In this document: positions 1-29,246 of the stretch, piece after piece
Layout of the letters: each line of letters starts with the position of its first letter
How positions within the stretch are numbered: the first letter of the stretch is position 1
Virus record (IMG/VR): IMGVR_UViG_3300009620_000033
Location: 1-29,246 of that record
DNA from: a virus
DNA: 29,246 nt
Direction: 5' to 3' (one strand)
Position numbers and translations under genes: made by a program
The notes under the pieces: generated by a model
The model's database searches: none
What the model was told of the DNA's origin: nothing
The model's input: only the letters and a program-made list of their open reading frames with translations

Positions 1-33
1 CCCGCCCTACCCTCTAAGTGCCGGGGACGAAAC

Positions 34-50
34 TCAGCCGTCAACGGCTG
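34..50 (-). terminator. Short hairpin at the end of the leftmost gene
   Basis: A near-perfect inverted repeat (CAGCCG, loop of four, CGGCTG) covers the stop codon of the last minus-strand gene. On the minus strand it is followed by AGTTTCG, which is only weakly U-rich. It may be a weak terminator, or may simply protect the transcript end. Confidence 0.3.
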
Positions 51-267
51 GGTTGTCCGCATCCCGGCGCGAAGGCCCCCCGGTCCCGGGCTTGGCAGCA
101 GCCTTTGAGATAAAGTAAAAGCCCAGAACGAGCGTCACAAGAGTCTCCACGTCGCCGCCAGCGAGGATGAGAGCAAGGAATCCCACGATAACGATAAAGA
201 TGGCGAGTAGCGCCCTCACACTGCCCGCTGGCAGCCAGAGGGGTTGTGTCTTATCAAACCAGTTCAC
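34..267 (-). CDS. Small two-helix membrane protein (holin-like)
   Basis: A 77-residue protein. I chose the GTG start at 267 because an AGGAG lies 8 nt upstream and overlaps the stop codon of the preceding gene; the longer in-frame ORF would run back into that gene. Residues 19-36 and about 40-55 are two hydrophobic helices joined by a short acidic turn (GGDVE), followed by a polar basic tail of about 20 residues. Size and two-helix layout fit phage holins and related small membrane proteins. It is the last gene of a minus-strand cluster that also holds other small membrane proteins and a peptidase-like protein, so a lysis role is plausible but only inferred. No sequence motif proves holin function. 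Confidence 0.6.
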   Translation of the reverse strand: MNWFDKTQPLWLPAGSVRALLAIFIVIVGFLALILAGGDVETLVTLVLGFYFISKAAAKPGTGGPSRRDADNPAVDG

Positions 268-278
268 GTAGGGGTCTC

Positions 279-527
279 CTAGAAACGGGGCCGCGTGCCC
301 TCTTCGAACTTGCCGCTGTTTGTGAGTCGCTGCCACTCGGGGCGTGTGAGAGTCTCGGTGCACGCTCGGGCTGTGGAGCAAGCCCATAGCACCGGGCTGT
401 CATCCGCCGGGGGCTTCCAGCTACGGGGCTTGCTATAGCCGCGCTTGAAGTCGTACGCCGTTCCGTCGTCCCCGCTCTTGTGTGAGATGGGGTACCAGCG
501 ATGGGTGTGCTTGAGGGGCCTAACCAC
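279..527 (-). CDS. Hypothetical small protein
   Basis: An 82-residue ORF starting at GTG 527, overlapping the end of the upstream gene by 8 nt. Its stop codon lies inside the AGGAG that serves the next gene. This tight packing on both sides, rather than any recognised domain, is why I accept it. It is rich in His, Trp, Ser and Arg, with two Cys (WACSTARAC) near residues 49-56. No membrane helix or known family is recognised. Translation probably depends on coupling to the upstream gene, because no good ribosome binding site is visible. A longer ORF on the same strand (254-841) overlaps it but covers two better-supported genes and is rejected. Confidence 0.5.
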   Translation of the reverse strand: MVRPLKHTHRWYPISHKSGDDGTAYDFKRGYSKPRSWKPPADDSPVLWACSTARACTETLTRPEWQRLTNSGKFEEGTRPRF

Positions 528-975
528 AGTCCGCTTCGCCCCGGGCTACAGCCGCCATCTGGGACATCGACTGGCTGAGGCCGTAGGCGCCGAAAGCCAC
601 GTCGGGGCTCTGGATGGCCTCGTAGTAGAGGCCCAAGCGGTAGAGGTCGAGCGACGAACGGAAGTAGGCCCACCAGCCCGCGTAGCACGGGCGAAGGGTC
701 ATAGCGTCCAGCCGTACCAAGCCTTGCTCCACCACGATGATGAGGTCGTCGCGGGCGTTGAGACTCTCGGGATACTCCCGCCGAAACGCCGCGTAGTACG
801 CTACGTCCTCTGACACTTCGGCGACCGTCATATCGGCCCACCGAAGCGCGAGAGAGTCGCCGTAGGCATCACTGCTACTATCGGCGCGAACGGCAACGCC
901 AGCGAACACCGCCGCGAGCGCTGCCCAAACCACGATGGCTGCTAGCTGAGTGGCTCGGAGTTCTAGGTTTCTCAT
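520..975 (-). CDS. Membrane-anchored protein with a Cys pair, unknown function
   Basis: A 151-residue protein from ATG 975; an in-frame GTG at 1023 is possible, but neither has a strong ribosome binding site. Residues 10-29 form one hydrophobic helix after a short basic start, so it is probably anchored with the rest outside the cytoplasm. The remainder looks helical, with Cys97 and Cys150 as its only cysteines. The gene at 3723-4265 has the same plan (N-terminal helix, alpha-helical rest, two Cys 55 residues apart near the C-terminus), so the two may be distant relatives. It sits in the membrane/lysis-like cluster; a spanin-like or exclusion role can be imagined but is not shown. Confidence 0.6.
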   Translation of the reverse strand: MRNLELRATQLAAIVVWAALAAVFAGVAVRADSSSDAYGDSLALRWADMTVAEVSEDVAYYAAFRREYPESLNARDDLIIVVEQGLVRLDAMTLRPCYAGWWAYFRSSLDLYRLGLYYEAIQSPDVAFGAYGLSQSMSQMAAVARGEADCG

Positions 976-1001
976 ACGAGCCAAGCTACCACTGGAGTAG
1001 T

Positions 1002-1013
1002 CAGCACTGCTAC
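1002..1013 (-). repeat. Copy of the dispersed CANTGCTAC motif
   Basis: Reads CAGCACTGCTAC on the plus strand (GTAGCAGTGCTG on the coding strand). It lies in the short gap between the gene ending at 1051 and the ATG at 975, and is followed by a small inverted repeat (CTACTCCAGTGGTAG). It is one of nine exact CANTGCTAC copies in the window, all in the same orientation. Confidence 0.45.
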
Positions 1014-1050
1014 CCCGGACCACAATAGGAACCAGCCGAGGGACTCGCAG

Positions 1051-1854
1051 TTACTCATATCCCTCATCGCGCTCATCTTCGATGCTGTCGATGATGCGAT
1101 CTAGGGTTCGACCGAATACCCACTCCGGGTCATTTTTCCACTCGTAGTCGGCAAGGTCTAGGTTGAGCTCTTCGATGTCGCGCTCGGCAAGCGCCAAGTC
1201 TTCCTTAAGGGTGTTACGCTCGTCACGGACAGCGCGGAGCTTCCGCTCGGCTACCGCCCCAGCGGATCCGACGCCGATCTCGAAACGGATACAGAAGTAA
1301 CGCTTGTTGTTGCGAAACTCGCTGCCGAACTTAGTGACGTGCGCCCACCTCACCCAGAAGGGCTTGTGGCTCATCGGCTCATAGACGAGCACTTGTGTAC
1401 CGTCGCCGTTGAGCCGAGCTAGGCCGACCTCGTGGGGGACATCGCCGACCTTATCATCTAGCCGGGATGAGCCCGGCACGTCATCGACGTTGCCGCTCAG
1501 CGAAACAAAATAGCCGTCCCGTAGGGCTTGCTTGAGTTCTGCCCCCGTGGGGTCGAACGGCTCCGCTCGCAGCTCGGGGAACAGCTTACGGTAGGCGTAC
1601 AGCGCGTTGCCCCGGCTGTAGCCTTTCGCCGCTGCCACGGACTCGCCGCGGTGGTCCGCTGCGAGTGCCCGCAATCGGCGCATCACTCTCGTCCGCTGCG
1701 TCTTGGTGTAGGGCTTGCCGCTCGGGTTTGTAAAGTATTCGTCAAGCGTTTGGTAGCGGGCTGCCGTCACCAGCGTGGACAGTCGGCACGCCGTGGTGGG
1801 CTTTATCCACGTCTGGGGTGTGGCACTGGGCTTGAACTTGTTTGGTGCAATCAA
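1051..1854 (-). CDS. Papain/C39-like cysteine peptidase-like protein (possible lysis enzyme)
   Basis: A 267-residue protein if translation starts at TTG 1854, which has a GGGAGAG 5 nt upstream; the ORF extends further but would overlap the upstream membrane gene. Residues about 20-180 resemble phage C39-like domains: a Cys near the start of a helix (ACRLS, Cys23), a segment like ELKQALRDGYFVSLSG, a His before a strand (PHEVGLARL, His141), then a strand ending in YEP and a Trp-rich stretch. This pattern suggests a Cys-His catalytic pair but is weak. Residues 195-235 are charged and probably a coiled coil. Its neighbours are a single-helix membrane protein (1878-2087) and further membrane proteins, so endolysin or virion peptidase are the two functions to consider. 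Confidence 0.45.
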   Translation of the reverse strand: MIAPNKFKPSATPQTWIKPTTACRLSTLVTAARYQTLDEYFTNPSGKPYTKTQRTRVMRRLRALAADHRGESVAAAKGYSRGNALYAYRKLFPELRAEPFDPTGAELKQALRDGYFVSLSGNVDDVPGSSRLDDKVGDVPHEVGLARLNGDGTQVLVYEPMSHKPFWVRWAHVTKFGSEFRNNKRYFCIRFEIGVGSAGAVAERKLRAVRDERNTLKEDLALAERDIEELNLDLADYEWKNDPEWVFGRTLDRIIDSIEDERDEGYE

Positions 1855-1877
1855 TGCCGCTCTCCCGTCATCTCTGT

Positions 1878-2087
1878 TTAGAACACGCCCGTGACAAGTA
1901 GGGCGGCGGTGGCTAGGCCACCCGCGCCGATGCCCCAAGCACCGAGGCGGGTGACTGCCGAGATTTGGATGTAGAAGTGGATGACTGGCTCCACCTTACG
2001 CTCAAACAAGACTTGTCGGATAAGAACATCGCGAAGCGTCGGGTTCTCTGGCACCTCGTCGAGGGGGTCTACGTAGTGGTCGTGCAT
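1878..2087 (-). CDS. Small C-terminally anchored membrane protein (holin-like)
   Basis: A 69-residue protein starting at ATG 2087 with AGGAG 5 nt upstream. The first 45 residues are polar and helical (PTLRDVLIRQVLFERKVEP). The last ~20 are hydrophobic (GAWGIGAGGLATAALLVTGVF), making one membrane helix at the C-terminus. It lies directly upstream of the peptidase-like gene at 1051, so the pair resembles a holin/lysin arrangement; this is an inference from size and position. Tail-anchored phage proteins of this shape are also found in roles other than lysis. Confidence 0.6.
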   Translation of the reverse strand: MHDHYVDPLDEVPENPTLRDVLIRQVLFERKVEPVIHFYIQISAVTRLGAWGIGAGGLATAALLVTGVF

Positions 2088-2113
2088 AGCCGCTCCTAGC
2101 GGGTGGGAGGAAG

Positions 2114-2179
2114 GCCCCGCCCTCCGTGGCGCTAGCGATGACACGCATAAAGGCGCGGTCCACGAACAGAGGGCGGGGC
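2114..2179. repeat. Long inverted repeat / structured intergenic RNA
   Basis: Perfect 11-bp arms (GCCCCGCCCTC at 2114-2124 and its complement at 2169-2179) enclose a 44-nt loop that itself holds a second inverted repeat (CGTGG / CCACG). It lies in the 179-bp gap between 2087 and 2267, just upstream of the ribosome binding site of the gene starting at 2087. It lacks a U-tract, so a leader structure or RNase-resistant stem is as likely as a terminator. Confidence 0.5.
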
Positions 2180-2257
2180 GTAGGGTTCTGATGTGATCCC
2201 CAGACCGGGGCACTCCTCACAGTCGCGTGAGATATAGATAGCGACTGGTAGCCACAC
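2132..2257 (-). CDS. Possible 41-residue Cys-containing ORF
   Basis: A GTG-started ORF fills much of the gap between 2087 and 2267. It encodes a CEEC pair and a later Cys-His (ACHR) at its end, which could bind a metal. There is no clear ribosome binding site, and it overlaps the long inverted repeat, so it may be chance. It is listed because the gap is otherwise unexplained. Confidence 0.2.
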   Translation of the reverse strand: MWLPVAIYISRDCEECPGLGITSEPYAPPSVRGPRLYACHR

Positions 2258-2266
2258 GGTCCGGGG

Positions 2267-2479
2267 TCATTTGGTTCCGCCGTCAACGTGGAACCCATTG
2301 GGGTCACGGGGCGGGGCTGGCTGAGAGCCAAACAAGCGTGGCTCTAGGCGTCTGGTGAGTTCGCCCACCGGATGCTTGCCTAGGTGGTGGAAGTAGGCCA
2401 CCGTGCTACGTGCGACGTAGCCGCACACTTCACACTCGTTAGGGTAGGGGTCGTAAGCTCTGGAGTAAAGGTTACCCAC
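2267..2479 (-). CDS. C2H2 zinc-finger protein
   Basis: A 70-residue protein from GTG 2479, with AGAGAG about 6 nt upstream. Residues 16-36 match the classical zinc finger spacing C-x2-C-x12-H-x3-H (CEVC ... HLGKH). The rest is short, polar and proline-rich. One finger this small usually binds DNA weakly or mediates protein contacts, so a regulatory role is plausible but unproven. It is the first gene after an AT-rich promoter-like stretch (2497-2525), which suggests that it starts a transcription unit including the membrane/lysis-like genes to its left. Confidence 0.7.
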   Translation of the reverse strand: MGNLYSRAYDPYPNECEVCGYVARSTVAYFHHLGKHPVGELTRRLEPRLFGSQPAPPRDPNGFHVDGGTK

Positions 2480-2496
2480 GGAGCGCTCTCTCAGCG

Positions 2497-2525
2497 TACA
2501 TATACATTATACCACACACTGTCAA
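2497..2525 (-). promoter_or_regulatory. AT-rich minus-strand promoter(s)
   Basis: On the minus strand a perfect extended -10 (TGG-TATAAT, hexamer at 2506-2511) stands in a strikingly AT-rich stretch of an otherwise GC-rich genome. A perfect TTGACA lies at 2520-2525. It is only 8 nt from TATAAT but 17 nt from a second hexamer TATGTA (2497-2502), so two overlapping promoters are possible. Transcription would start about 10-25 nt before the GTG of the zinc-finger gene. A 9-codon leader ORF (ATG at 2499) would overlap that GTG. Confidence 0.65.
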
Positions 2526-2527
2526 GC

Positions 2528-2962
2528 TCAAACCGCAACCCCCGCCTCCCGCTTCGCGGCGTTCCAATGCCGCGAGTAGTGCTTGCGGCAGTAGATCTTT
2601 CCATCCCCGCCGTAGCGTCTCTGTGCTGGCCGCTTGCACTCCGCATCTCGGCACAGTTCGCCGACGTACTTATGCTTGCGTCCGGGGTGCTTTCCCCCGG
2701 CAGCGTTTCGCTTGGCAGCAGCAGCAGCCATCTCTCCCCGCCGCTTTTCTGCCCACTGCTCGTCCGACCACTTGCGAGTGACGCCAGCGTCGGCTATCGT
2801 GATAGTCCCGTCGCACGTGCCCGCATCTCGCATATCGGCTCGGAATTCCGGGATGCAGTCCTCACACGGACTGGCTGCCGCCATCGGCCCGCTCCGGTCG
2901 TTGAGCGCGAGCCATACCGTCCGTTCTATGGGCGTCATACACGCCCCGGTGTTACTCGTCAT
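2528..2962 (-). CDS. Double Cys-cluster (zinc-binding-type) protein
   Basis: A 144-residue protein whose ATG overlaps the end of the upstream membrane-protein gene by 11 nt. Two metal-binding-type clusters are visible. One is C-x2-C-x13-C near residues 33-50 (PCEDC ... GTC). The other, at the C-terminal end (about 104-130), is C-x4-C-x15-C-x2-H (YCRKH). A basic, Ala/Lys-rich linker (KRRGEMAAAAAKRNAAGGKH) joins them. The basic linker and zinc-type ends suggest nucleic-acid binding. No HNH catalytic motif is obvious, so I do not call it a nuclease. The function is unknown. Confidence 0.65.
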   Translation of the reverse strand: MTSNTGACMTPIERTVWLALNDRSGPMAAASPCEDCIPEFRADMRDAGTCDGTITIADAGVTRKWSDEQWAEKRRGEMAAAAAKRNAAGGKHPGRKHKYVGELCRDAECKRPAQRRYGGDGKIYCRKHYSRHWNAAKREAGVAV

Positions 2963-3194
2963 CGGTTGCGATGACCCACGCGAAACCCGCCGCTGCCAGA
3001 ACCGCCGCGGTTGCCCCCGCGAAGACGTGGACGAATGCCCCTAGAGCCACTGCCCCCACTCCCGCCAGAGCGAATGGGGCGAATAGCTCTACGAATATCT
3101 TGTATCGAAGCAGCCGAAGCACCGCGCGTCGCCGCTCTTGGCGGGCGTTGTGCTCGCGCACGAGCCGCCCCCGCTCGACATCCAACCTACTCAT
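2952..3194 (-). CDS. Small membrane protein, two hydrophobic helices
   Basis: 80 residues from ATG 3194. GTG at 3197 is equally well placed behind the GGGAGG. The start overlaps the last codons of the upstream nuclease gene. The first 30 residues are highly basic and polar. Residues about 33-75 are two Ala/Val-rich membrane helices (AGVGAVALGAFVHVFAGATAA ...), and the tail is acidic. It is another candidate holin or inner-membrane protein; nothing identifies it further. The dispersed motif GTAGCAGTG overlaps its start codon. Confidence 0.6.
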   Translation of the reverse strand: MSRLDVERGRLVREHNARQERRRAVLRLLRYKIFVELFAPFALAGVGAVALGAFVHVFAGATAAVLAAAGFAWVIATDDE

Positions 3195-3726
3195 CACTGC
3201 TACCTCCCAGCCAACGCAGCCAACTTTGCTCCATAAAGGCCGGGGCTGTGATGTCAGCCGGTGGCCTCACGTAGCAGTGCCGCACGTCCAGCTTGTGCAC
3301 GCTCTTCCGATGGTCGATGGACCGCCCGCCGCGCTTACGTAGGAAGCGGGGATCCTCCACGCCGATAGTCAAGATGTCCTCAGCGCTGGCCCCCACTAGC
3401 CAACCGTCTGACGTACGCCATACGACGACGCCACGCGCTGGGGGGTCCATCTCAGCGGCCCGCTCGGCCACGGCTGCGGCCTTCCCGGTGTCCACCAGCG
3501 GACCACCCCAGCCCGCCAACTGCGTATAAGTGTAGTCCCGGTCCTTAACTTCCACCACGAACGTTTCGAGCATCCCGTTCGATACGAGGAAGTCAGTGCG
3601 GTCCGCCGGGCCGGGAGTGCCCAGAGTGGTGTGATCCAACCCCTCCCACGCGCGGTCTACGATAGCTTGCTCGGCTGCCTTGTCGATAGTGACCGGACCG
3701 TGCCGTACGGCTGTAGTGCTCGTCAC
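3187..3726 (-). CDS. PD-(D/E)XK superfamily nuclease-like protein
   Basis: 179 residues from GTG 3726, which overlaps the upstream stop codon (GTGA), so translation is probably coupled. The core fits a PD-(D/E)XK fold: a helix (KAAEQAIVDRAWEGL), Asp45 in RTDFLVSN, then ETFVVEVKDRDY with Glu59 and Lys61 on a strand, followed by a helix with GWGGPLVDTGKAAAVAE. These residues could coordinate the metal for DNA cleavage. The subfamily cannot be assigned. A role in DNA processing, host-DNA degradation or defence against other phages are alternatives. The longer ORF back to 3840 only copies the opposite reading of its neighbour. Confidence 0.5.
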   Translation of the reverse strand: MTSTTAVRHGPVTIDKAAEQAIVDRAWEGLDHTTLGTPGPADRTDFLVSNGMLETFVVEVKDRDYTYTQLAGWGGPLVDTGKAAAVAERAAEMDPPARGVVVWRTSDGWLVGASAEDILTIGVEDPRFLRKRGGRSIDHRKSVHKLDVRHCYVRPPADITAPAFMEQSWLRWLGGSSDE

Positions 3727-4265
3727 CCGCGGGCGCACTCGTAAAATGCCGCTCGGGTCCGCTCGACTCGCCCTAGCTGTCGCCAGTAACGACGGAGCAT
3801 CCACGGCTGTATGGCGCGGTCGTTGTCCAGCCGCCGCCAATAGCGGGCGCTCGTTTGCCCGAACATCACGCCCGCTACTGACAGCCGGGAGAGACGAACG
3901 GTGCAGTCGGGGTAGGTGCCCCGCGCTATGCGGTTCAAGTTGGTCGTGCCCCAGCGGGCGATATCACGCGACTTGCGAACTGCCCCCGCGTAGTCGCTGC
4001 TGACACCGCGGAACAGTTGAGCGTTAAGGCGGTCGTTGAGCACGCCGACTCTCTGGTCGGCGTCGGGGACCGCGGCGGTGACGCTGGCAGTCGCGAACAC
4101 CGCCCAGCCCAGTCCGATGAGGGCCACTGCCGCCATAGCCTTCTTGTAGCCTTGCTGTAGCGGCCTAGGGCTGGTCCCAGCCCGCTTGTGGGCTTGAAAC
4201 ACCCCACCCTTGCCGCCACTGCCTACGCTCGCATCAGATAGGGGAACTCGTGCAGTTGTTCTCAT
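3723..4265 (-). CDS. Membrane-anchored protein with a Cys pair, unknown function
   Basis: A 180-residue protein. The ATG at 4265 has GGAGGG 4 nt upstream and is preferred to two in-frame ATGs slightly upstream. A basic, flexible N-terminus of 40 residues precedes one membrane helix (about 43-65), then an arginine-rich helical domain with Cys121 and Cys177. The plan matches the gene at 520-975. It is the first gene behind a very good minus-strand promoter (4276-4304), whose predicted start falls within a few bases of the ATG. No known domain is recognised. Confidence 0.6.
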   Translation of the reverse strand: MRTTARVPLSDASVGSGGKGGVFQAHKRAGTSPRPLQQGYKKAMAAVALIGLGWAVFATASVTAAVPDADQRVGVLNDRLNAQLFRGVSSDYAGAVRKSRDIARWGTTNLNRIARGTYPDCTVRLSRLSVAGVMFGQTSARYWRRLDNDRAIQPWMLRRYWRQLGRVERTRAAFYECARG

Positions 4266-4275
4266 AGTGCCCTCC

Positions 4276-4304
4276 ATAGTAGCCATCTTCTAGCCAATTG
4301 TCAA
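4276..4304 (-). promoter_or_regulatory. Strong sigma-70-type promoter
   Basis: On the minus strand, TTGACA (4299-4304) is separated by exactly 17 nt from TACTAT (4276-4281). Transcription should begin near 4269-4265, at or just before the ATG at 4265. The transcript would be leaderless or nearly so, or else a slightly later start would be used. The same -10 hexamer, TACTAT, is used by the plus-strand promoter at 19774. Confidence 0.7.
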
Positions 4305-4305
4305 G

Positions 4306-4798: not shown

Positions 4799-4800
4799 CT

Positions 4801-5148: not shown

Positions 5149-5149
5149 A

Positions 5150-5398
5150 TCAAGTGTCCTCATCTTCCGTGTCGTAATCCGCGGGTCCGCCCATCGCAGA
5201 GATGTCATCTCTGGGGCACGGCTGGCTGAGGGCCGGCATCTCGCAGATGTCGCACCACTCCGGCCCCGCTAACCGTAAACGTGTCGGGGGGCGCGCCGTA
5301 GTCATCTCGTGGTATCCGCCGTCTTCTAGCAAGTCGGGCCGGAGCGGGATTGTGGGGTGGCCGTCTGGGTCCCGCCGGTAGCAGATTCGTTTAAACAC
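5150..5398 (-). CDS. Small Cys-containing protein carrying a copied primase fragment
   Basis: 82 residues from GTG 5398, with GGGAGGGAG 4 nt upstream. The second half has a possible metal site (WCDIC ... PC). Codons for TTARPPTRLRLA near the middle fall inside a 39-bp sequence (5268-5306) that is repeated with one mismatch in the primase gene (7579-7617), where it is read in another frame and encodes part of the primase active-site region. That segment of this protein is therefore probably recent and not under old selection. The tail is very acidic (DYDTEDEDT). Function unknown. Confidence 0.5.
   Translation of the reverse strand: MFKRICYRRDPDGHPTIPLRPDLLEDGGYHEMTTARPPTRLRLAGPEWCDICEMPALSQPCPRDDISAMGGPADYDTEDEDT
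5268..5306. repeat. 39-bp direct repeat, copy in the small gene
   Basis: It matches 7579-7617 at 38 of 39 positions in the same orientation. The only difference is G versus A at the 23rd base. Flanking sequences do not match. This is the likely recipient copy, because the other one encodes conserved primase residues. Confidence 0.85.
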
Positions 5399-5930
5399 CG
5401 CTCTCCCTCCCGTGTACGTCAAGCCAGTAGCCCCCGCCCATCACGTAGAAGCCGATACGTGGCTCCCCGCCGTGTAGGGCTAGCCAGTCGTTGGCCCGGA
5501 TGTAGATGTAGTCAGTAGTGCTACGTCCCGCGTGGACAAAGGACCGGACCACGATGCCAATACGGTCGGGGTACAGCCCGTCCATCGCTTGCAGCGGGCC
5601 CATCACGTACCCCGGCAGCACATCCACGTGTGCAATGCCGTGGGAACTGGCTAGGAAGTCGGGAACGGCGGCCCGCGTGGCTTTGCTCTGGACCTTCACG
5701 TGGTCCCCCAAGAGGTCCACGGCATCACCTAGCTGGCCGACTTTCAGCCAGCCGTAGCGCTTCGCTAGCCGCCGCTCGTTGTCTTTACCCATCCGCACGC
5801 TGCTACGGGACCGCTTGGCTGCCTCGTGGTCCCGCGTCTTTCCACACGTCGAGACTTCGCAGACTTCCACCCCGTCGAGCACGCCCCAGCGGTGGCGCTG
5901 ATGGATGCTCGCAAACTTACGCTGGCTCAT
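5391..5930 (-). CDS. Hjc-like Holliday-junction resolvase-type protein
   Basis: 179 residues. The ATG at 5930 overlaps the primase stop codon by 14 nt. Residues 48-86 fit an archaeal-Hjc/PD-(D/E)XK pattern: GKDNERRLAKRYGW (Glu52), then GQLGDAVDLLG (Asp72) and KVQSK (Gln81, Lys83), where Gln occupies the usual Glu position, as I recall from other phage members. Such enzymes cut four-way DNA junctions or trim recombination intermediates. Two Cys in EVCEVSTCG (residues 21-30) could bind zinc. The position, directly after the primase-ATPase and near the YqaJ exonuclease, supports a replication/recombination role. Confidence 0.55.
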   Translation of the reverse strand: MSQRKFASIHQRHRWGVLDGVEVCEVSTCGKTRDHEAAKRSRSSVRMGKDNERRLAKRYGWLKVGQLGDAVDLLGDHVKVQSKATRAAVPDFLASSHGIAHVDVLPGYVMGPLQAMDGLYPDRIGIVVRSFVHAGRSTTDYIYIRANDWLALHGGEPRIGFYVMGGGYWLDVHGRESGV

Positions 5931-8448: not shown

Positions 8449-8460
8449 CAAATCTGCTAC
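8449..8460 (-). repeat. Degenerate copy of the dispersed motif at a gene junction
   Basis: Reads CAAATCTGCTAC on the plus strand. It overlaps the TAG stop of the exonuclease gene and precedes the ribosome binding site of the next gene. On the coding strand it continues as TTTGACTAGGAG, sharing TTGACTAGG with the copy near 8009. Confidence 0.35.
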
Positions 8461-9359
8461 TTACTCAAACGGGTGAAGCGCAACGTGCGCTTACCGCTCT
8501 TGTTTGGCTTGGACTCAGCCGTCCAGCTTGGATGCCGGACAAGCCGCAAGCCGTCCCGCCCCATTCGCTCGATAAGCCCAGAACGGGCATCGCCAAGGGC
8601 GATCTTGATAGCGTCTTGTTGGCCCATAAGGCCAACAATCACCGTGCCGATTGCTTCCATCTCGCTACTCGCTGCCGCCACGCCCTCCGGGACGTCAAAC
8701 GACCACAAGAGGTCTGGTGGCGTATCCGCTGGTGGGATACGCGGGGTGATGTGATCCCGGTAGAACGCGGTGATGCGCTCGGCAATCTCACGCTGTAGCT
8801 CCGGGTCGGCTGGTACTTCCAGCCCTATGAATTCCCGCCCGCCGATCAGTGCCCACAAGCGCCCACGGCTGGCCCCGGACACCATAAGTTGAGCTTGGAC
8901 TTGGGCGTAGTAATGGGGCGGGGCAGTCGGGTTGTCCTCCCCGTCGCGCCACTCCTCGGCCATATACGCGCTGGCCGTCTTGACTTCTACCACCTCTGGC
9001 GGACTGGTACCGACGACAACGGCGTCATAGGTCACGACCAGCGGCAGCATCGGGTGCTTACGAGAAAGGCTGTTGCGCCGGACCCGTAGCCCGGTCTGCT
9101 CCATACCTATCCGGAGGACAACCGGCTCCAACACGTGCCCCATTTCCACGGCTCGGGCGTTGCCACTGAACGTATCAATGCCGTGGACGATATTGGCATA
9201 CAAGTCGGCGGGAGTGCGGAAGGGGTGGCCGCAATCCAGTAGGGCCGCGACTTCCGACGCGCCGACGCGGCCCGCTCGCGCCGCTTGGTTTTGGCGCTAA
9301 GCGGCGGCACTGTCGGCTTCCCCGAAGACTTTGAGAGGGGCCGTGGCAATCTCCGTCAC
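8457..9359 (-). CDS. YqaJ-type recombination exonuclease interrupted by an in-frame TAG
   Basis: Translation would start at GTG 9359, overlapping the upstream stop (GTGA). It runs 20 codons, then meets TAG at 9297-9299, and the same frame continues for 279 codons. After the TAG the protein is a typical YqaJ/lambda-exonuclease-like nuclease: RVGASEVAALLDCG, GHVLEP, Asp112, the catalytic EVVEVKTAS (Glu125, Lys127), and HYYAQVQAQLMV. No ATG, GTG or TTG precedes the conserved GASE segment after the TAG; the first is the TTG at 9203, which would lose that motif. The gene therefore needs readthrough, a non-standard start, or is broken (or miscalled at one base). It degrades 5' ends to make ssDNA for recombination with the protein encoded at 8029. 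Confidence 0.75.
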
Positions 9360-9697
9360 GCTGCCGCCCTCCGCCGCCGACCAGCAGCGCGGACTTCACG
9401 GACTCTGGCCCACGAGACACCGACTGCCTTGCATCCCCGCTCGTCAAGACCGACTTCCATCGCCAGGAGGCCGTCAAAGCCCTCTCGGATAGCGGCGGGG
9501 TCGGATCGAGCGGCGTCGAGGGACTGTTGCTCGCGCCCGTTCACACCCCACCGAAAGCACATTGATCGGTCCGGGGTGCTGGGTCGATGGACGAAGTGGG
9601 TACGCCCGGACTCGTTGCCCGTGACGGCGATAGCCCCTCCGTCCGCGAAGTCAACGCTGTCCCGGCACGAGTCGCAACGCTGGGATTGCCTACCCAC
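9356..9697 (-). CDS. Small Cys/His-containing early protein
   Basis: 113 residues from GTG 9697, overlapping the upstream TAG (GTGGGTAG). A CDSC pair near residue 8 and a later His/Cys group (HFVHRPSTPDRSMC) could form a zinc site. A second Cys lies near the C-terminus, and the last residues are Arg/Ala-rich. It directly precedes the YqaJ gene, sharing a GTGA junction. The longer ORF to 9832 overlaps the upstream gene and is not favoured. No known family. Confidence 0.5.
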   Translation of the reverse strand: MGRQSQRCDSCRDSVDFADGGAIAVTGNESGRTHFVHRPSTPDRSMCFRWGVNGREQQSLDAARSDPAAIREGFDGLLAMEVGLDERGCKAVGVSWARVREVRAAGRRRRAAA

Positions 9698-9938
9698 AGA
9701 GTGCCGCCTCACAGAGTGGGGCGAAAAACTCGTGCACGTCATTAACGTCGCGCAAGTCGGCACCGCCCTCAGCCATCGCATATAGCGCCAGTAACGCCCG
9801 GTCGATGCTAGCGATACCCATTGCGGGGTCACCCCCTTGCATCTCGTGGATACGGCTCATCAGCTCGTCAACGAGGCTGTATGTGGTCGCGTCGGCAACA
9901 CTGCTACCTTTGTCGCTCAAGGGCGGAAGGGGTTCCAA
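9690..9938 (-). CDS. Small acidic hypothetical protein
   Basis: 82 residues from TTG 9938; an AGGAG 6 nt upstream overlaps the end of the previous gene and decides this unusual start. The protein is acidic and helical (SLVDELMSRIHEMQGG, SIDRALLALYAMAEGG, VNDVHEFFAPL), with two Cys at the end (LCEAALCG). A copy of the dispersed motif (9896-9907) lies within the early codons. Function unknown. Confidence 0.6.
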   Translation of the reverse strand: MEPLPPLSDKGSSVADATTYSLVDELMSRIHEMQGGDPAMGIASIDRALLALYAMAEGGADLRDVNDVHEFFAPLCEAALCG

Positions 9939-9939
9939 C

Positions 9940-10236
9940 TTATTCTCCTAGCTCGATGACGCTGTACCCAGCCGTGAGGGCCGCTGCCCTCTGCGCTGGT
10001 TGGCTGTGGTGGTAGCAACGCGGATGGTCCGTGTACTGCCACTGGCCGCCCCGGTTGAGCCGTGACTCCATAAACACGTACCGGGGTGCTCGGCTACACG
10101 GTCGCGTGGGTTCGTCCGCCTTGTTGAGCGGATACGTGCAAGTCTCCAACTGGTGGCCTACCTCACGTGCGGACTGATTGGATTCGGCTAGTCCGATAGC
10201 CCCTAACGACTCCCGCCGCTGGTGCAACCTTAGCAC
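9940..10236 (-). CDS. First early gene, small Cys-containing protein
   Basis: 98 residues from GTG 10236, though no strong ribosome binding site is visible; an internal ATG near 10068 is a weaker alternative. The middle part has Cys-Tyr ... PCSRAPRY ... DHPRCYHH, a possible zinc ligand set of three Cys and His. It is the first gene of the left minus-strand block after the non-coding region 10237-10618. A small inverted repeat (GATAG ... CTATC, about 10241-10254) sits just upstream of its start. Function unknown. Confidence 0.5.
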   Translation of the reverse strand: MLRLHQRRESLGAIGLAESNQSAREVGHQLETCTYPLNKADEPTRPCSRAPRYVFMESRLNRGGQWQYTDHPRCYHHSQPAQRAAALTAGYSVIELGE

Positions 10237-10292
10237 ACCGATAGGTTGCTATCTGAGCGGGACCGCAATTCGTCGATACGTTTCAGCGAGGT

Positions 10293-10339
10293 GGCTGATC
10301 CCCTACCCCCCCCCTTTAGGGGGGGGGTAGGGGTCAGCC
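10293..10339. repeat. Very stable C9/G9 hairpin
   Basis: The arms read GGCTGA(T)CCCCTACCCCCCCCC and its complement, 21 paired bases with a single bulged T, around a TTTA loop. Both strands carry G9-TA-G4, so G-quadruplex formation is also possible. It could be a bidirectional terminator, an origin element or a packaging/pausing site. Confidence 0.7.
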
Positions 10340-10374
10340 CTAGTAACTAGTAGCTAGGGGTTGCCGTCCCGGGG

Positions 10375-10403
10375 TTGACGGACGTAGCAACGTTAGCTAG
10401 TAT
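10375..10403 (+). promoter_or_regulatory. Plus-strand sigma-70-type promoter
   Basis: TTGACG (10375-10380), a 17-nt spacer, then TAGTAT (10398-10403). The spacer contains GTAGCAACGTTA, which resembles the half-site of the dispersed motif. Transcription would start near 10410 and run rightward, opposite to the genes on both sides. Confidence 0.6.
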
Positions 10404-10507
10404 GCGTTGAGACGGGTGCCAGTAGGAAGTGATGCTCCCATCACCGAAGCACTAGTGTCGTCCACCCGTCAACTCACCACAGCCCCGGCTGGTCACCGGG
10501 CGGGGCT
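10404..10507 (+). ncRNA. Possible structured plus-strand small RNA
   Basis: Directly downstream of the plus-strand promoter, GTTGAGACGGGTG (10406-10418) pairs with CACCCGTCAAC (10463-10473) with a two-base bulge. Inside it is a perfect hairpin, GTGATG-CTCC-CATCAC (10429-10444), and a palindrome, CACTAGTG. A GC hairpin (10481-10507, AGCCCCG ... CGGGGCT) could end the RNA. No ORF longer than a few codons is present, so the product, if any, is RNA. Confidence 0.4.
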
Positions 10508-10533
10508 CCTCGCTGTGTATGCGACTAAGTTAA

Positions 10534-10564
10534 CCCCCGCCCCAGCACAAAGCTGGAGCGGGGG
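10534..10564 (-). terminator. Late-operon terminator
   Basis: CCCCCGC/GCGGGGG arms with a second paired block (CCAGC/GCTGG) and one mismatch. On the minus strand it is followed by TTAACTT. It lies 55-85 bp after the last tail gene (ends 10619) and is well placed to stop leftward late transcription. Confidence 0.65.
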
Positions 10565-10580
10565 TAGAGAGAGGGAGTGA

Positions 10581-10595
10581 CGGGGTAGCACCCCG
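10581..10595 (-). terminator. Small hairpin after the last tail gene
   Basis: A perfect CGGGG-TAGCA-CCCCG stem-loop between the stop codon at 10619 and the larger terminator. It may back up or precede it; there is no U-tract. Confidence 0.3.
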
Positions 10596-10618
10596 CCGCG
10601 TGTAGTGGGGGGGAGTGC

Positions 10619-23639: not shown

Positions 23640-23646
23640 GGTTTAA

Positions 23647-23678
23647 TCAGCCGCCAAGCTGACTAGTCCGAAGACTAG
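23647..23678 (-). promoter_or_regulatory. Tandem hairpins at the capsid stop codon
   Basis: Two adjacent stem-loops: CTAGTC-TTCG-GACTAG on the coding strand (23663-23678), a UUCG tetraloop that includes the stop codon, and TCAGC-TTGGCG-GCTGA (23647-23662). With the stronger stem at 23614 they form three consecutive hairpins that probably stabilise the capsid mRNA 3' end. The rest of the gap to 23503 is GC-rich without a gene. Confidence 0.55.
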
Positions 23679-24901
23679 GTGTCGGCGCTGATCATATAGT
23701 GGACTGCCGCTGTGTCCACGAGGTCGCCGTCCACTTCAAGAATGGTGCGGATAGCAACTTGGTCGTCTTGGAACTTGAAGTCCACTGACGTATCGACGCG
23801 CAGCGGTAGACGCCGCACGTAGTAGGCGGAGAAGTCTCCGAAGGCAAGCGACTTGCTAATGCTGGCGGGGGCTGCCATCGCGGGGTTCTCCCACAGAGGG
23901 CGTGCCAGAAGCGAGCCACCCGGCGCGGTATCGGCGATGCCGTTACCAAGCGGGTTGTACATAAAGTTGCCGTTACTGTCCTTGATCTTCCTAATCTTTG
24001 TCATCGAGTCGGTGGCGACTTGCCACGAGGCGACGCCCGGAAGCCGGTAACCGGCAGCCGGTGACATAAAGAGGTCGATAAGGTCAGAGGGACCGAAAAA
24101 CGTGTCCGTGGACTGGTCCGCGGCGGTGCCGCTCGCAGTTCCACCGTTGGTCGCCGCCGTGATGAAGCCGTTAGGCTTATCAGAGCCGTCGCCCGTGGTG
24201 AAGTGCGCGCCAGCGTCGATACCAATCTCGCGCGCTGCACCGCTCGCGATGATCTTAGCAAGGCCGATGACGTTGGACCGAGCAAGCTCCGTGCTCACAA
24301 ACGTGATGCTCGGGTACTTGTACGTGTACAGCGTGACGCTGGAGATTGTGGGGTCTGCGGCAACGATGCCCGTGTTTTCCGCCGTCACTGTGCCGCCATA
24401 GGCTTGGTCGGCTGTCTTACGGGGGATGACAAGGGGGACGTTATCGTCCGTCTCAAGGACGGTAGCAACGTTAATGACCGGGTTGACGGTTCGCTCGTAA
24501 TCCACGAACAAGTCTGCAAACTCGGTCGGGACGGCGGAGCCGCCATCGGGGGTGTTGCCGAGAGCACGAGACTCAAAGCGCGCACCCGGAACGTCGCCCG
24601 TGACGATAGCGCGGAGCGTGTCGTACTGGCTGACGGGGCCGGCCTTCTCGATGGCCGCAACCTTGGGGGCGATGCGCGTAGCAATCGAGTCCTCAAGGTT
24701 CACGCCAGCGATGCGCTCGGTGTGCCGCGTCTCTTCGGCGTTGAGGGCGTCAAGGTCCGCTTCGATACGGTCCATCTGCTCTCGCTCCTCAGAAGTAAGG
24801 TCGCGGTTTTCAGCGGCCACCTCATCGGTCAGAGACGTGTAGGCTACCCACGCGGAGCCCTTACGCTCACGGATTGAGCGGGTGTAGTTGTCAAGCTCCA
24901 T
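23675..24901 (-). CDS. Major capsid protein (HK97 fold)
   Basis: 408 residues from ATG 24901, with GGGAGG upstream; an upstream TTG in frame lies before that site. The N-terminal ~105 residues form a charged coiled-coil delta/scaffold domain (SEEREQMDRIEADLDALNAEE), probably removed by the prohead protease near ALGNTPDGGSAVPTE. The rest is the HK97 core: VPTEFADLFVDYERTVNPVI, VPLVIPRKTADQA, a long spine helix region with GAAREIGIDAGAHFTTGDG, and a final LRVDTSVDFKFQDDQVAIRTILEVDG. It is the product most likely to be glycosylated by the adjacent cassette. Confidence 0.95.
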   Translation of the reverse strand: MELDNYTRSIRERKGSAWVAYTSLTDEVAAENRDLTSEEREQMDRIEADLDALNAEETRHTERIAGVNLEDSIATRIAPKVAAIEKAGPVSQYDTLRAIVTGDVPGARFESRALGNTPDGGSAVPTEFADLFVDYERTVNPVINVATVLETDDNVPLVIPRKTADQAYGGTVTAENTGIVAADPTISSVTLYTYKYPSITFVSTELARSNVIGLAKIIASGAAREIGIDAGAHFTTGDGSDKPNGFITAATNGGTASGTAADQSTDTFFGPSDLIDLFMSPAAGYRLPGVASWQVATDSMTKIRKIKDSNGNFMYNPLGNGIADTAPGGSLLARPLWENPAMAAPASISKSLAFGDFSAYYVRRLPLRVDTSVDFKFQDDQVAIRTILEVDGDLVDTAAVHYMISADT

Positions 24902-24941
24902 TCTGGAACCTCCCAATTACAAGGGTTGGTTTGTTGTACGG

Positions 24942-24953: not shown

Positions 24954-24998
24954 TTAGGCAGCGTCGTCAGAGGGGAGCGGTGGCGCTGTCGGGCGCAT

Positions 24999-25010
24999 CC
25001 GTTTAAACGG
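24999..25010. repeat. 12-bp perfect palindrome at the protease stop codon
   Basis: CCGTTTAAACGG includes the TAA stop of the protease gene (25003-25005). The core GTTTAAAC occurs only once more in the window (near 5389), also at a gene junction. The palindrome may be chance or a weak protein-binding site. Confidence 0.3.
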
Positions 25011-25743
25011 GCGACCCAGTTGACTCCGACTCATAGCCCAAGCGGTGGGCAAGTGCAGCCCTTCGGGCTAGCATCTCCACCGTCTGCGGGTTCACATAGG
25101 GGGTTGGTACGCAAGCGTTGATAGCTCGCTGTAGTAGGTCGTGCTGCTCACCCGTCAGTTCCGGGCTATCAGCGGTAAGGGCCGCGAGCGCAGAACGCAT
25201 CACGGTGTCCTCCACTTGCACGGCATCGGCCAGCGCTCGGACTCCCACGCTCGTCTGCGGATAGGCGGGCCAGCTAGAGACAGTGGAGATCTCGAAAAGT
25301 TTGACTTCTGACACATCGCGGATCTGGCCGTCATCCCCCTCACTCCACGTGGCCGCGTCGGGGTTGCCGAGCGAAAAGCCGACGGACATCCCTTCCACGT
25401 CGCCGCGCTCGATGGCATCCACCACGGGCCGTCCCCACTCGTTGTCGGGGGGAACGATGCGATGCGCTAGCCCGTGGTCATCGGCGCTGAGTTCAAGCGT
25501 GCCCTTGCGGGTGGATCCGATAACAACGTCGGAGTTGTGGTTGTGGAACGCCTTAATGCTGTCGCCGCGCTCGCTCAGCGTGCGGTCAAACGACGTAGCT
25601 GCAAACCGCTCGCGAAAACCGCCCAAGTCGTCGGACAGCACGCCGAACACGGCGCTGTATCCGTAGATGGTCGGGAGGTTATGCCCCGCCTCGCTGCGGA
25701 GTTCTGGCGTCTCCGGAGAGAAACGTACTTCTCGTGTGCTCAT
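25003..25743 (-). CDS. HK97 prohead protease (peptidase S78)
   Basis: 246 residues from ATG 25743, with AGGAG 4 nt upstream. A serine protease of the S78 family: the N-terminal strand IYGYSAVFGVLSDDLGGFRERF, AFHNHNSDVVIGS with the catalytic His (His69), and VEGMSVGF with the catalytic Ser (Ser120). The C-terminal part is a helical, Ala/Leu-rich extension (SALAALTADSPELTGEQHDLLQ). It cleaves the delta domain of the capsid protein encoded next to it during prohead maturation. The normal position between portal and capsid genes supports this. Confidence 0.93.
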   Translation of the reverse strand: MSTREVRFSPETPELRSEAGHNLPTIYGYSAVFGVLSDDLGGFRERFAATSFDRTLSERGDSIKAFHNHNSDVVIGSTRKGTLELSADDHGLAHRIVPPDNEWGRPVVDAIERGDVEGMSVGFSLGNPDAATWSEGDDGQIRDVSEVKLFEISTVSSWPAYPQTSVGVRALADAVQVEDTVMRSALAALTADSPELTGEQHDLLQRAINACVPTPYVNPQTVEMLARRAALAHRLGYESESTGSPV

Positions 25744-25817
25744 AGTGCTCCTAAGTCGTCTTGAGTAGAAGTGCTGGGGGCCGCTGCCCGTGGTTTTTGG
25801 GTCGGGTCCGTCTCGTC

Positions 25818-27206
25818 CTAGGACGGGACGCCCTCGCTAGCGGTGTCCTCTGGGTCGTCGTCTTCGATAAGGTACTGCGTGGTCGGGTTGAGACCGAGAT
25901 GGTCGATACCCGAGATTCCGACGTGGGCCGCTGAGCCCACCGGATCGAACCCGGCGCGGATGAGCTTGGACATATCTTCCAACGCGGGGTCACTCGTCCG
26001 GTTATTGGGGGTGTCGAGATAACCGCCCTCACCATCCGGGGCCGGTGTCCGGTCCTCCGAAGCGCGCCACTCATCGCGGGTGATCACGCGGTTCTGGATC
26101 TCGATGGCGCGGATTTGTGCCCGCGTTTTACTGTCGCCGCGTAGGAGCGCGTCAACGTTGAACTTGACGAAAGTGTCGGCGCCGGGGATAAAGCGTGAGT
26201 AGACCGTCTCTAGCCGATTGAGCACCGGAACAAGAGCGTGCTTCACGTACTCGATAGACCGCTGCTCGGAGTTGCTTCCGAGGCTGCTGCCCGCCTCACT
26301 GGCGAGTAGGTGGGGCGGGATGTGGTAGAATCGGCAAGCCTCTTCAAGAACGTGCACCCAGAGCGGGGCTAGCTCGGCCTCACCCGGCTTGATGGTCCCC
26401 TCGTGGATGGTCGCGCCACCCGTGAGGACGCCCGTCACCCAAGACTTCTTGTTGCCCTTGTGCTTGAATTCGAACTGTCGCCGGATGCCCGCGATCTCCT
26501 CGCTGCTGGGTTTTCGACCCTCACGCGGGAGGAGGATGATGCCGCCCGTGGTGGCACCATTCTGGAAAAAGTTGCCAGCCCATCGACGGGCTGCTAGTTC
26601 TAGGCCGGTGAACTCTCGGGCTTGCTCCACCATATCCAGCCCGCGAAGGTCGCCGGGTAGGCTGATCCAAGGGACGTGGGCGATGCTGCTGCCGTCCACT
26701 GGGGCCCCCTCGATCGGGATGTAAACGGGGTAACCATCGGCACCGCGTTCGACTTCGATGCCCTTTGGCGGCAGCACGTTGATAGCTCGGGGCACGGTCG
26801 TATTGGGCAGCCCCTCCAAAAACAAGTTGCCGTTGCTAAGTAGCGAGACGACAGCCTCCGAGAGGTGGGCTTCTGACGTAGACCACGGTCCGCCGTTTGG
26901 GCGGTCCATCCACGCTGGGGAGTCAATCATCTCCCGCGCTTTGCCCGCCTTGCGAAAGGCGTGCCACGGTAGTGATGAGATGTCATCGGCCAGAAGCCGG
27001 ATGCACGCGCCCATAGCGGCCCGCATAGCGGACTGCACTGTCACTTCCTCCCCCGCATCGGGGGTCGTGCCGGGGAACTGGTTTGTGGCGAAACCGAAGT
27101 CCGATGCGTCCACGGCCCGAACCTCACCCGTGGTAGTGTCGAACCCCCACCGGGCGTTACTGTCTTTCGAAGCCACATAGTCTCGGGCTCTGTCTAGTAG
27201 ACCCAT
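25818..27206 (-). CDS. Portal protein (HK97 family)
   Basis: 462 residues from ATG 27206, with GGAGG just upstream, overlapping the terminase end region. Typical sequence: VQSAMRAAMGACIRLLADDISSLPWHAFRK, NGNLFLEGLP, the AREFTGLELAARRWAGNFFQNGATTGGII segment, and CRFYHIPPHLLASEAGSSLGSNSEQRS followed by IEYVKHALVPVLNRLETVYSRF. The C-terminal part is acidic. It forms the dodecameric channel for packaging and docks the terminase. Confidence 0.95.
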   Translation of the reverse strand: MGLLDRARDYVASKDSNARWGFDTTTGEVRAVDASDFGFATNQFPGTTPDAGEEVTVQSAMRAAMGACIRLLADDISSLPWHAFRKAGKAREMIDSPAWMDRPNGGPWSTSEAHLSEAVVSLLSNGNLFLEGLPNTTVPRAINVLPPKGIEVERGADGYPVYIPIEGAPVDGSSIAHVPWISLPGDLRGLDMVEQAREFTGLELAARRWAGNFFQNGATTGGIILLPREGRKPSSEEIAGIRRQFEFKHKGNKKSWVTGVLTGGATIHEGTIKPGEAELAPLWVHVLEEACRFYHIPPHLLASEAGSSLGSNSEQRSIEYVKHALVPVLNRLETVYSRFIPGADTFVKFNVDALLRGDSKTRAQIRAIEIQNRVITRDEWRASEDRTPAPDGEGGYLDTPNNRTSDPALEDMSKLIRAGFDPVGSAAHVGISGIDHLGLNPTTQYLIEDDDPEDTASEGVPS

Positions 27207-27218
27207 CTGGCCTCCGGG

Positions 27219-28832
27219 TTAGTCAAACGGGATAAACTCAAGTCCCGCTCCTTTATCGAATGTGAGAGCACGGTTGTGGGCCATTACCGCTGCCACAGCC
27301 AAGTCGATCTTCTGGCCGTGTGTTTGCTTGACGATATGCCCGCCGCCCCAGCCCTCTTTGATAACGGCGTTGGCGATGTGTCGGGCTAGGCGGGGGTCAC
27401 CATCGTGGGTAACTCGCTCTTCGATCACTGCGGTGTACATCTCGCGGGTAGCTGGCTTCATTCGGCCACTGGTCGGGGGCCACTCCACGATGGGCGCCCC
27501 GGACTCCTCCCAGCGGGCTAGGTGCTCGCGCCAGTAGGCCGGGTCACAGACCACCTCCACCACGTTGTGGTGGTCGAGCGCTTCGAACAGCGTGGCCTCG
27601 ACCTCCTCTGACGGCACCACCCAAGCGTGGGCTTCCGGTGGCCGCTCCCACGCCTCCACCACGAAGATGTGCCTAGAGTCGATCGTGATGCCAACGATGG
27701 CCGTGGAGTCGTTGGTCCACGAGCCGTCGAAAGCGAGTACGACTTGCTCGTCACTGCTGACTTGCCGATCGCTTGCTCGCCTCCCCCACAAGCCGTAGGG
27801 TAGCCACGACTGATGGCCGCTCACCCAGCAGTTGAGCCGCTTGGTACGGTACTCGTTTTCTGGCGTCTGTGGCGGTAGGGCGCTGTCCAAGTCCAACGGG
27901 TCTAGGACAGAGCCGAGACTCGGGTTCGCTTGCGCGCGAGCCGTTTCGTCTGCCGGGTCGGCATCCTCGTCAGCCGGGGCGTACCACGTGAAGCCGAACG
28001 TGGGATCCGCGTTTTCGCCACTCGCGATGGTGCGACCGTAATCAAACAGTTGCTTGCAGATAGTCGGCTGGCCGAACCTATCCACCATCACGCCCGCCGT
28101 GGTGATGATGACCATAAGCGGGTCGACGCGAGCACCCATTGCTAGGCTCATCACGTCGTATAACTCACGGTCCGGAAGCGCGTGTAGCTCGTCAAAGATG
28201 ATGGCGCTGGGAGAAAGCCCCTCTTTGGTAAACGACTCGCTGGACAGCGCGGTGTACGTGCTGCCCGTCTCGGGGAACTCGATGACGCTGCGGTACGACT
28301 TAAGCATCTTGGACAACCCGGGGTCCATCTCAACCATCCGCTTGGCTGCGTTGAAGGCGAGCTTGGCTTGCTCTCTGTCGGCAGCGCACGAATAGACTTC
28401 TGCGCCGTCAACTTCCACCAGTAGGGCGTACAACGCGATGACCGCGGCCATAGCCGTTTTGCCGTTTTTGCGGGCGACGCCGATCAAGTACCGGCGCGCT
28501 AGGCGTCGGCCCGTCTGCGGGTCGCGGGCGTAGATACGGTGGATGAGTCGAACTTGCCACGGCAGCCACGAGATGGGATCGCCGACTGCTCCACCGACAC
28601 TGTCCTTGTGGACGCGCCCGTACTCGAACGCGAACTCTAGGACTCGGGTTCCGTCTCCGGCTTCGATGGCGTCGTTAGGGATGGGGGACTCGTACTTTGG
28701 TAGGACGAGTCCGTCGGCTGCGGGCCGCCAGAGCGGGATTGCCGCAGCCGCTCTAGGGTCGATGTTACGTTCGCTTTCTGTAATCCGAGTCGGCCCCGGT
28801 CCGAAGGTGAGAGGCCCAGTAGAGAGAGCCAT
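27219..28832 (-). CDS. terL: Terminase large subunit
   Basis: 537 residues from ATG 28832. Motor domain with Walker A GVARKNGKT (118-126) and Walker B IIFDE (211-215, catalytic Glu215). RNase H-like nuclease with VVLAFDGSW (Asp369), VVCDPAYW (Asp430) and KIDLAVAA (Asp510). The conserved core begins only at about residue 60. The leader before it overlaps the small-terminase gene by 196 nt, yet contains no alternative ATG, GTG or TTG, so this long overlap is real. It packages DNA with the portal and small subunit. HK97-like (Terminase_1) family. Confidence 0.97.
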   Translation of the reverse strand: MALSTGPLTFGPGPTRITESERNIDPRAAAAIPLWRPAADGLVLPKYESPIPNDAIEAGDGTRVLEFAFEYGRVHKDSVGGAVGDPISWLPWQVRLIHRIYARDPQTGRRLARRYLIGVARKNGKTAMAAVIALYALLVEVDGAEVYSCAADREQAKLAFNAAKRMVEMDPGLSKMLKSYRSVIEFPETGSTYTALSSESFTKEGLSPSAIIFDELHALPDRELYDVMSLAMGARVDPLMVIITTAGVMVDRFGQPTICKQLFDYGRTIASGENADPTFGFTWYAPADEDADPADETARAQANPSLGSVLDPLDLDSALPPQTPENEYRTKRLNCWVSGHQSWLPYGLWGRRASDRQVSSDEQVVLAFDGSWTNDSTAIVGITIDSRHIFVVEAWERPPEAHAWVVPSEEVEATLFEALDHHNVVEVVCDPAYWREHLARWEESGAPIVEWPPTSGRMKPATREMYTAVIEERVTHDGDPRLARHIANAVIKEGWGGGHIVKQTHGQKIDLAVAAVMAHNRALTFDKGAGLEFIPFD

Positions 28833-29200
28833 TGCGTTATGCGGCCCTCCAACTTGTCCAGCGCACCTACAGCCGGATTGGCCGTGACCACTAGGTAGGT
28901 GTCGTACTTTGTGGTCCGTGACAACTCAAGGACCGCGCCCCGTGCGTTTATGTCGCCGATCAGAAGCGCTCGCCGCTCCCAGCCCTCGCACAGTAAGAGC
29001 AATGTGGGGAGGTCAGACGGGGCGATCCAAGCGTTGGCCTCGCGGACCACGTGTGCCCATATGCTCGCCGCGTCCTCCCCCAAGTGGGGCGGGGCTGCTA
29101 GCGCCGAGTCAACCGGCGCTGCCGCCAAGGCGTTAGAGTCTGGGTCTACCGGCCCGCGTGCGTTGCCGCGAGCTTGGCCGGGGGGCTTAGCTGCTGTCAT
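28637..29200 (-). CDS. terS: Terminase small subunit (P27-type)
   Basis: 187 residues from ATG 29200, with GGGAGGG 5 nt upstream, preferred to the GTG at 29236 near the window edge. A P27-like small terminase: disordered Pro/Ala-rich N-terminus, then GEDAASIWAHVVREANAWIAPSDLPTLLLLCEGWERR, a central helix pair, and the signature LGLSPSDRGRLGL near the end. The last ~35 residues are Ser/Thr/Pro-rich and lie entirely within the terL reading-frame overlap. It recognises the packaging site and regulates TerL. Confidence 0.85.
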   Translation of the reverse strand: MTAAKPPGQARGNARGPVDPDSNALAAAPVDSALAAPPHLGEDAASIWAHVVREANAWIAPSDLPTLLLLCEGWERRALLIGDINARGAVLELSRTTKYDTYLVVTANPAVGALDKLEGRITQWLSLLGLSPSDRGRLGLQKANVTSTLERLRQSRSGGPQPTDSSYQSTSPPSLTTPSKPETEPES

Positions 29201-29246
29201 CTCGGCCCTCCCGGGTTCAAAGTGGCCCGCGGGCACTCAGATTGCC

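What the first reader, a model, noticed from the sequence alone, without database searches (positions are those of the whole stretch)
1..29246. The tetranucleotide CATG is completely absent
I checked every ATG on the plus strand (well over two hundred) and none is preceded by C; CATG is its own complement, so this covers both strands. At about 60% GC, roughly 100 occurrences would be expected. CATA, CATC, CATT, GATG, TATG and AATG are all common, so the deficit is specific. It affects coding and non-coding DNA alike, and no ATG start is preceded by C. Such total counter-selection is best explained by long exposure to a restriction system cutting CATG (NlaIII-type specificity, or enzymes whose sites contain CATG). 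This is a strong clue to the host range.
Basis: partly seen in the sequence, partly recalled or inferred. Interest (0 to 1): 0.78.

Follow-up and report, generated by a model that had tools for sequence, protein, structure and literature searches.

The report
Phage genome purged of CATG and CAGG
This environmental phage has lost every copy of the four-letter DNA words CATG and CCTG and all but one copy of CAGG, most likely to escape a DNA-cutting defence in its host, and since CAGG is not a site I know any such enzyme to recognise, the missing words may point to an undescribed enzyme.

Summary
CATG occurs 0 times in 29,246 bases (90-93 expected). The avoided set is CATG plus CAGG/CCTG, which can be written CAKG/CMTG. 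With protein and codon counts held fixed, genes show 0/0/0 against 67/68/87 expected; glutamine before G is always CAA (85 of 85), elsewhere mostly CAG (106 of 143). Both sense words are missing although all recognised genes lie on one strand, so the pressure acts on double-stranded DNA, not mRNA. The closest distinct relative, L068 (47-68% protein identity, synonymous sites close to saturation), also lacks CATG, CAGG and CCTG, so selection is maintained. Most other relatives keep CAGG, and many have eliminated other words instead (AGCT, GATC, GGCC+CCGG+TCGA+AATT, the asymmetric CCGC and ACGG). Best explanation: host restriction by Type II-like enzymes at CATG and CAGG/CCTG, by two enzymes or one degenerate CAKG enzyme. 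Elimination of palindromic sites is a known phenomenon; elimination of asymmetric CAGG predicts a specificity I do not know to be described. The host is unknown.

The parts
1..29246 (.). Whole contig: CATG 0, CCTG 0, CAGG 1; GATC at about 0.4x; palindromic hexamers at about 0.5x
9464..9467 (+). The only CAGG in the contig; reads CCTG on the minus strand, in a Leu CTG codon of ORF 9356-9832
27219..28832 (-). Large terminase, used to find relatives
25818..27206 (-). Portal protein; 66% identical to L068, same words absent in both
23675..24916 (-). Major capsid protein (HK97 fold family); 54% identical to L068
20588..23503 (-). GT4 - epimerase - GT2 cassette shared with L068 and with prophage L037
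5917..7935 (-). PrimPol-AAA replication protein
8457..9203 (-). RecE/YqaJ-like exonuclease

Best explanation
The phage has been purged of CATG and of CAGG/CCTG by sustained selection from host DNA restriction acting on both words. The likely agents are orthodox Type II-like endonucleases: a CATG cutter (NlaIII-type specificity) plus an enzyme with the asymmetric four-base site CAGG/CCTG, or a single enzyme with the degenerate site CAKG/CMTG. Each unmethylated site entering the cell is a chance of being cut, so genomes that replaced sites, mostly by synonymous codons, survived until almost none was left. Shown: the absence, its double-strandedness, its independence of reading frame, and its maintenance in a diverged relative. 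Inferred: that the agent is a restriction enzyme, and its type. Unknown: the host and the enzyme.
For: CATG 0, CAGG 1, CCTG 0 against about 93, 128 and 155 expected. Codon shuffles expect 67/68/87 in genes, observed 0/0/0; glutamine before G CAA 85 of 85 and histidine before G CAC 83 of 83. Both sense words are missing though all recognised genes are on the minus strand, so DNA rather than mRNA is read. The same zeros in near-identical contigs of three other IMG/VR records. L068, at 47-68% protein identity and near-saturated synonymous sites, has the same zeros although about 250 single synonymous steps would create one. Relatives have lost other words, many of them restriction-type palindromes. 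Published surveys tie such elimination mainly to orthodox Type II sites (PMC6286503; PMC8034619).
Against: No host, enzyme or methyltransferase was identified. CAGG is not a recognition site known to me, and REBASE was not available. In the published survey avoidance is mostly of palindromic sites. One CAGG remains at 9464.
Confidence: 0.85

Rival explanations
1. One enzyme of degenerate asymmetric specificity CAKG/CMTG (K = G or T) explains both words, rather than two separate systems. This is a sub-case of the best explanation.
For: Both words are at or near zero together in the window and in L068, and no contig lacks CAGG while keeping CATG.
Against: CATG zeros without CAGG loss occur in 14 other contigs of the survey, so CATG cutters act alone elsewhere. 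Only two lineages show both, and L068 has also lost CCAG/CTGG, GATC and AGCT, so several systems act there.
Confidence: 0.3
2. A non-classical defence that reads short words (for example phosphorothioation-based Dnd or Ssp systems) imposes the selection instead of a Type II enzyme.
For: Such systems read three- to four-base words (own knowledge). Flank-independent three-base depletion (GAC/GTC at about 0.2x) is seen in some relatives.
Against: None is known to me to read CATG or CAGG. The three-base depletions are partial and in other viruses. Not testable without a host.
Confidence: 0.08
3. Mutational bias or deamination at methylated sites removed the words without selection.
For: None beyond the absence itself.
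Against: Mutation bias does not give exact zeros; the replacements are not only C-to-T type (histidine CAT to CAC, base before ATG codons G 92, T 47, A 12); the same words persist at normal frequency in most relatives.
Confidence: 0.02
4. Selection on mRNA (codon-pair bias or a sequence-specific RNase) rather than on DNA.
For: Most of the contig is coding.
Against: An RNA-level agent reads one strand, but sense CAGG (68 expected) and sense CCTG (87 expected) are both 0, in all frames, and intergenic stretches are depleted too.
Confidence: 0.02
5. Assembly or library artefact that removed DNA with these words.
For: The contig is known only from metagenomes.
Against: Losing reads that contain a word breaks contigs; it does not replace the word by synonymous codons. 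Three other IMG/VR records give at least 99.9% identical sequence, and a diverged relative agrees.
Confidence: 0.01

Closest known systems
Restriction-site avoidance in dsDNA phages (Rusinov et al. 2018, PMC6286503; significant absent words in viruses, PMC8034619)
   Same: Complete loss of a short word in a phage genome, strongest for Type II sites; CATG is a classical Type II site (NlaIII, own knowledge)
   Different: CAGG/CCTG is not palindromic and not a site known to me; two words are lost in full together
Asymmetric four-base Type II R-M systems: MnlI (CCTC) and AciI (CCGC, site from own knowledge) (PMC4081073), MhoVII (GATG/CATC, PMC12898733)
   Same: Four-base non-palindromic sites read on both strands; relatives here have lost CCGC (L154, L194) and nearly CCTC (L099)
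   Different: None of them reads CAGG/CCTG; no enzyme was identified here
Contig L068 (IMGVR_UViG_3300032231_000237)
   Same: Closest relative found; CATG, CAGG and CCTG all 0
   Different: Also lacks GATC, AGCT and CCAG/CTGG, and CAG is rare overall; only 5.9 kb known
Pontimonas phage phiPsal1 (MG835450)
   Same: Similar gene order with terminase, portal, protease, capsid, glycosyltransferases; terminase 42%, capsid 34%
   Different: CATG only slightly depleted (87 of 113) and no four-letter word eliminated; annotated with a DNA methylase

Membership tests
Phage restriction-site avoidance (orthodox Type II) | Word far below expectation from composition and codon use | tested here: met
Phage restriction-site avoidance (orthodox Type II) | Loss on both strands, in all frames and outside genes | tested here: met
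   the intergenic sample is small (2.8 kb)
Phage restriction-site avoidance (orthodox Type II) | Different relatives lose different words | tested here: met
Phage restriction-site avoidance (orthodox Type II) | The word is a known restriction site | tested here: inconclusive
   CATG yes (own knowledge); CAGG/CCTG not found in the papers searched; REBASE not available
Phage restriction-site avoidance (orthodox Type II) | The host carries the matching restriction-modification system | not testable with these tools
   Host unknown
Type III restriction escape by strand bias | Site removed from one orientation only | tested here: not met
   CAGG and CCTG are both gone; Type III sites are rarely avoided (PMC6286503)

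The most novel reading that the evidence does not exclude
The missing words record an undescribed restriction specificity, a four-base asymmetric enzyme reading CAGG/CCTG (or CAKG/CMTG as a single site), in environmental bacteria infected by this phage lineage. The wider phage group, whose members have each lost different words including ACGG, would then be a readable catalogue of unknown host enzymes.
Probability: 0.5. Interest if true: 0.55.

Novelty: new variant of a known kind. Interest (0 to 1): 0.45.

Why it matters
Complete removal of a palindromic restriction site by a phage is well known. Removal of an asymmetric four-base word on both strands, kept up across near-saturated synonymous divergence, turns the phage genome into a prediction of an enzyme specificity that I do not know to be described. 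Since 72 of 190 surveyed contigs carry at least one total or near-total absence, word sets of phages could help match uncultured phages to hosts and find new restriction enzymes.

Tried and rejected
Circularity or terminal repeats of the contig: none found. Relatives by primase: none encoded; by capsid or portal alone: only the near-identical contigs; portal and epimerase alignments with L068 added only distant hits. Methyltransferase or antirestriction genes in the window: none recognised in the Pfam, PHROG or PADLOC scans, though not every small ORF was scanned and each library was given only part of the proteins. The match of 5391-5930 to TPR chains (E = 2e-16) is a sum over repeats, each stretch at 0.05 or worse, and was rejected. 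AlphaFold without an alignment failed for both nuclease-like proteins (pLDDT 35 and 37), so no fold search was made. AGCT depletion in the window depends on the null model (0.58x by order 2, about 0.9x by order 1, 80 against 96 by codon shuffle), so I do not claim it; GATC depletion holds under all of them. No other five-base word in the window is eliminated once those containing the three words are set aside. tRNA genes: none. Literature searches for CAGG or CAKG as a methylation or restriction site gave nothing relevant.

Full report
OBSERVATION. CATG is absent from all 29,246 bases. An order-2 Markov model expects 90 and order-1 simulations give 93 +/- 9 with a minimum of 73 in 100. The absence is not confined to CATG. 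CCTG is also 0 and its complement CAGG occurs once, at 9464; the two-strand expectation is 149 by order 2 and about 283 by order-1 simulation. CAAG/CTTG (143/238) and CACG/CGTG (209/247) are common. The eliminated set is therefore CATG plus CAGG/CCTG, which can be written CAKG/CMTG.

CODING CONSTRAINT. In 35 gene-like ORFs, synonymous codon shuffling that keeps each protein and its codon counts expects 67 CATG, 68 CAGG and 87 CCTG in the sense strand; observed 0, 0 and 0. Histidine before G is CAC in 83 of 83 cases and glutamine before G is CAA in 85 of 85, while glutamine elsewhere is CAG in 106 of 143. Proline before G is CCC, CCG or CCA but never CCT, and the base before an in-frame ATG is G 92, T 47, A 12, C 0. 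The surviving site is in a Leu codon of ORF 9356-9832, an ORF that was not in the gene set. All recognised genes lie on the minus strand, so an RNA-level pressure would have removed only one of CAGG and CCTG from the sense strand; both are gone. The intergenic stretches also have fewer than expected. Mutational bias does not give exact zeros and does not fit the replacement spectrum.

WHAT THE CONTIG IS. It is a virus record without terminal repeats: a tailed phage with small and large terminase, portal, S78 protease, HK97-type capsid, a GT4-epimerase-GT2 cassette, tape measure, PrimPol-AAA and RecE-like exonuclease. Terminase and capsid are nearest, among named phages, to Pontimonas phage phiPsal1 (42% and 34%), which has no eliminated tetranucleotide. 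A syntenic prophage, L037, lies in a MAG labelled Chloroflexi (terminase 60%; cassette 46-55%). It has normal CAGG and about half the expected CATG. The host of the window phage remains unknown.

RELATIVES. Contigs at least 99.9% identical in three other IMG/VR records show the same zeros. The closest distinct relative, L068 (5,868 bases; portal 66%, protease 47%, capsid 54%, GT4 61%, epimerase 68%), has CATG 0, CAGG 0, CCTG 0, and in addition GATC, AGCT and CCAG/CTGG at 0. Conserved fourfold sites agree at 39% against 32% for random pairing, and about 250 single synonymous changes in its five genes would create a CATG, CAGG or CCTG. The shared zeros are therefore best read as maintained in both lineages rather than merely inherited. 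GATC, zero in L068, is at 0.36x in the window, which fits a weaker or lapsed pressure there; that reading is inference.

SURVEY. Among 190 contigs of at least 4 kb, found by terminase or GT4 similarity (overlapping and near-identical records included), 72 lack or almost lack at least one tetranucleotide: AGCT in 43, CATG in 20 (five of them pieces of the window virus), CCGG in 9, GGCC, TCGA and GATC in 7 each, ACGT in 6. L019/L029-L031 lack GGCC, CCGG, TCGA and AATT together. Asymmetric words are rarer: CAGG (window virus and L068), CCGC (L154, L194), ACGG (L215, 1 against 70 expected), CCTC (L099, 2 against 49), CCAG (L068). CCGC and CCTC are the sites of AciI and MnlI, which are real asymmetric four-base enzymes (MnlI CCTC and the AciI system in PMC4081073; the AciI site is own knowledge), and MhoVII at GATG/CATC was reported in 2026 (PMC12898733). 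This supports reading CAGG as an enzyme site. I found no described enzyme for it in the literature I could search; REBASE was not available.

MECHANISM. The best explanation is host restriction by orthodox Type II-like enzymes acting at CATG and CAGG/CCTG. A published survey reports that avoidance concerns mainly orthodox Type II sites, is not seen for Type I and IIG, and is rare for Type III, with complete or nearly complete elimination in about a tenth of viral genomes (PMC6286503). Loss of both orientations argues against escape from a Type III system by strand bias. Whether one CAKG enzyme or two enzymes act cannot be decided: both words are at or near zero together in two lineages, but CATG zeros alone are common in other relatives. 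A non-classical word-reading defence is not excluded.

VERDICT. The phenomenon is known; the asymmetric word is the new element.

Noticed in passing
L068 1-5868: The trinucleotide CAG/CTG is almost absent (22 against 147 expected); Gln CAG 0 of 49, Leu CTG 3 of 130 with CTA 62 of 130 at 59% GC. The depletion holds in all frames against codon shuffles.
   Followed up: partly
L184, L200, L207, L214 (whole loci): GAC/GTC is at about 0.2x of expectation regardless of flanking bases in four contigs that also lack AGCT.
   Followed up: partly
L019, L029, L030, L031 (whole loci): Distant relatives with four palindromes at zero: GGCC, CCGG, TCGA, AATT.
   Followed up: partly
L215 1-6079; L154; L194; L099: Asymmetric words at or near zero: ACGG in L215, CCGC in L154 and L194, CCTC in L099.
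   Followed up: no
L057 1-11155: GAG/CTC at 62 against 307 expected in a contig of a MAG labelled Planctomycetota.
   Followed up: partly
window 1-29246: Palindromic hexamers as a class are at about half of expectation (275 against 566 in order-1 simulation).
   Followed up: partly
window 3187-3840 and 5391-5930: Two proteins that look by eye like PD-(D/E)XK nucleases; no family hits and no usable fold.
   Followed up: partly
window 10280-10350: A run of C followed by a run of G (hairpin-like) in the long intergenic gap 9939-10618.
   Followed up: no
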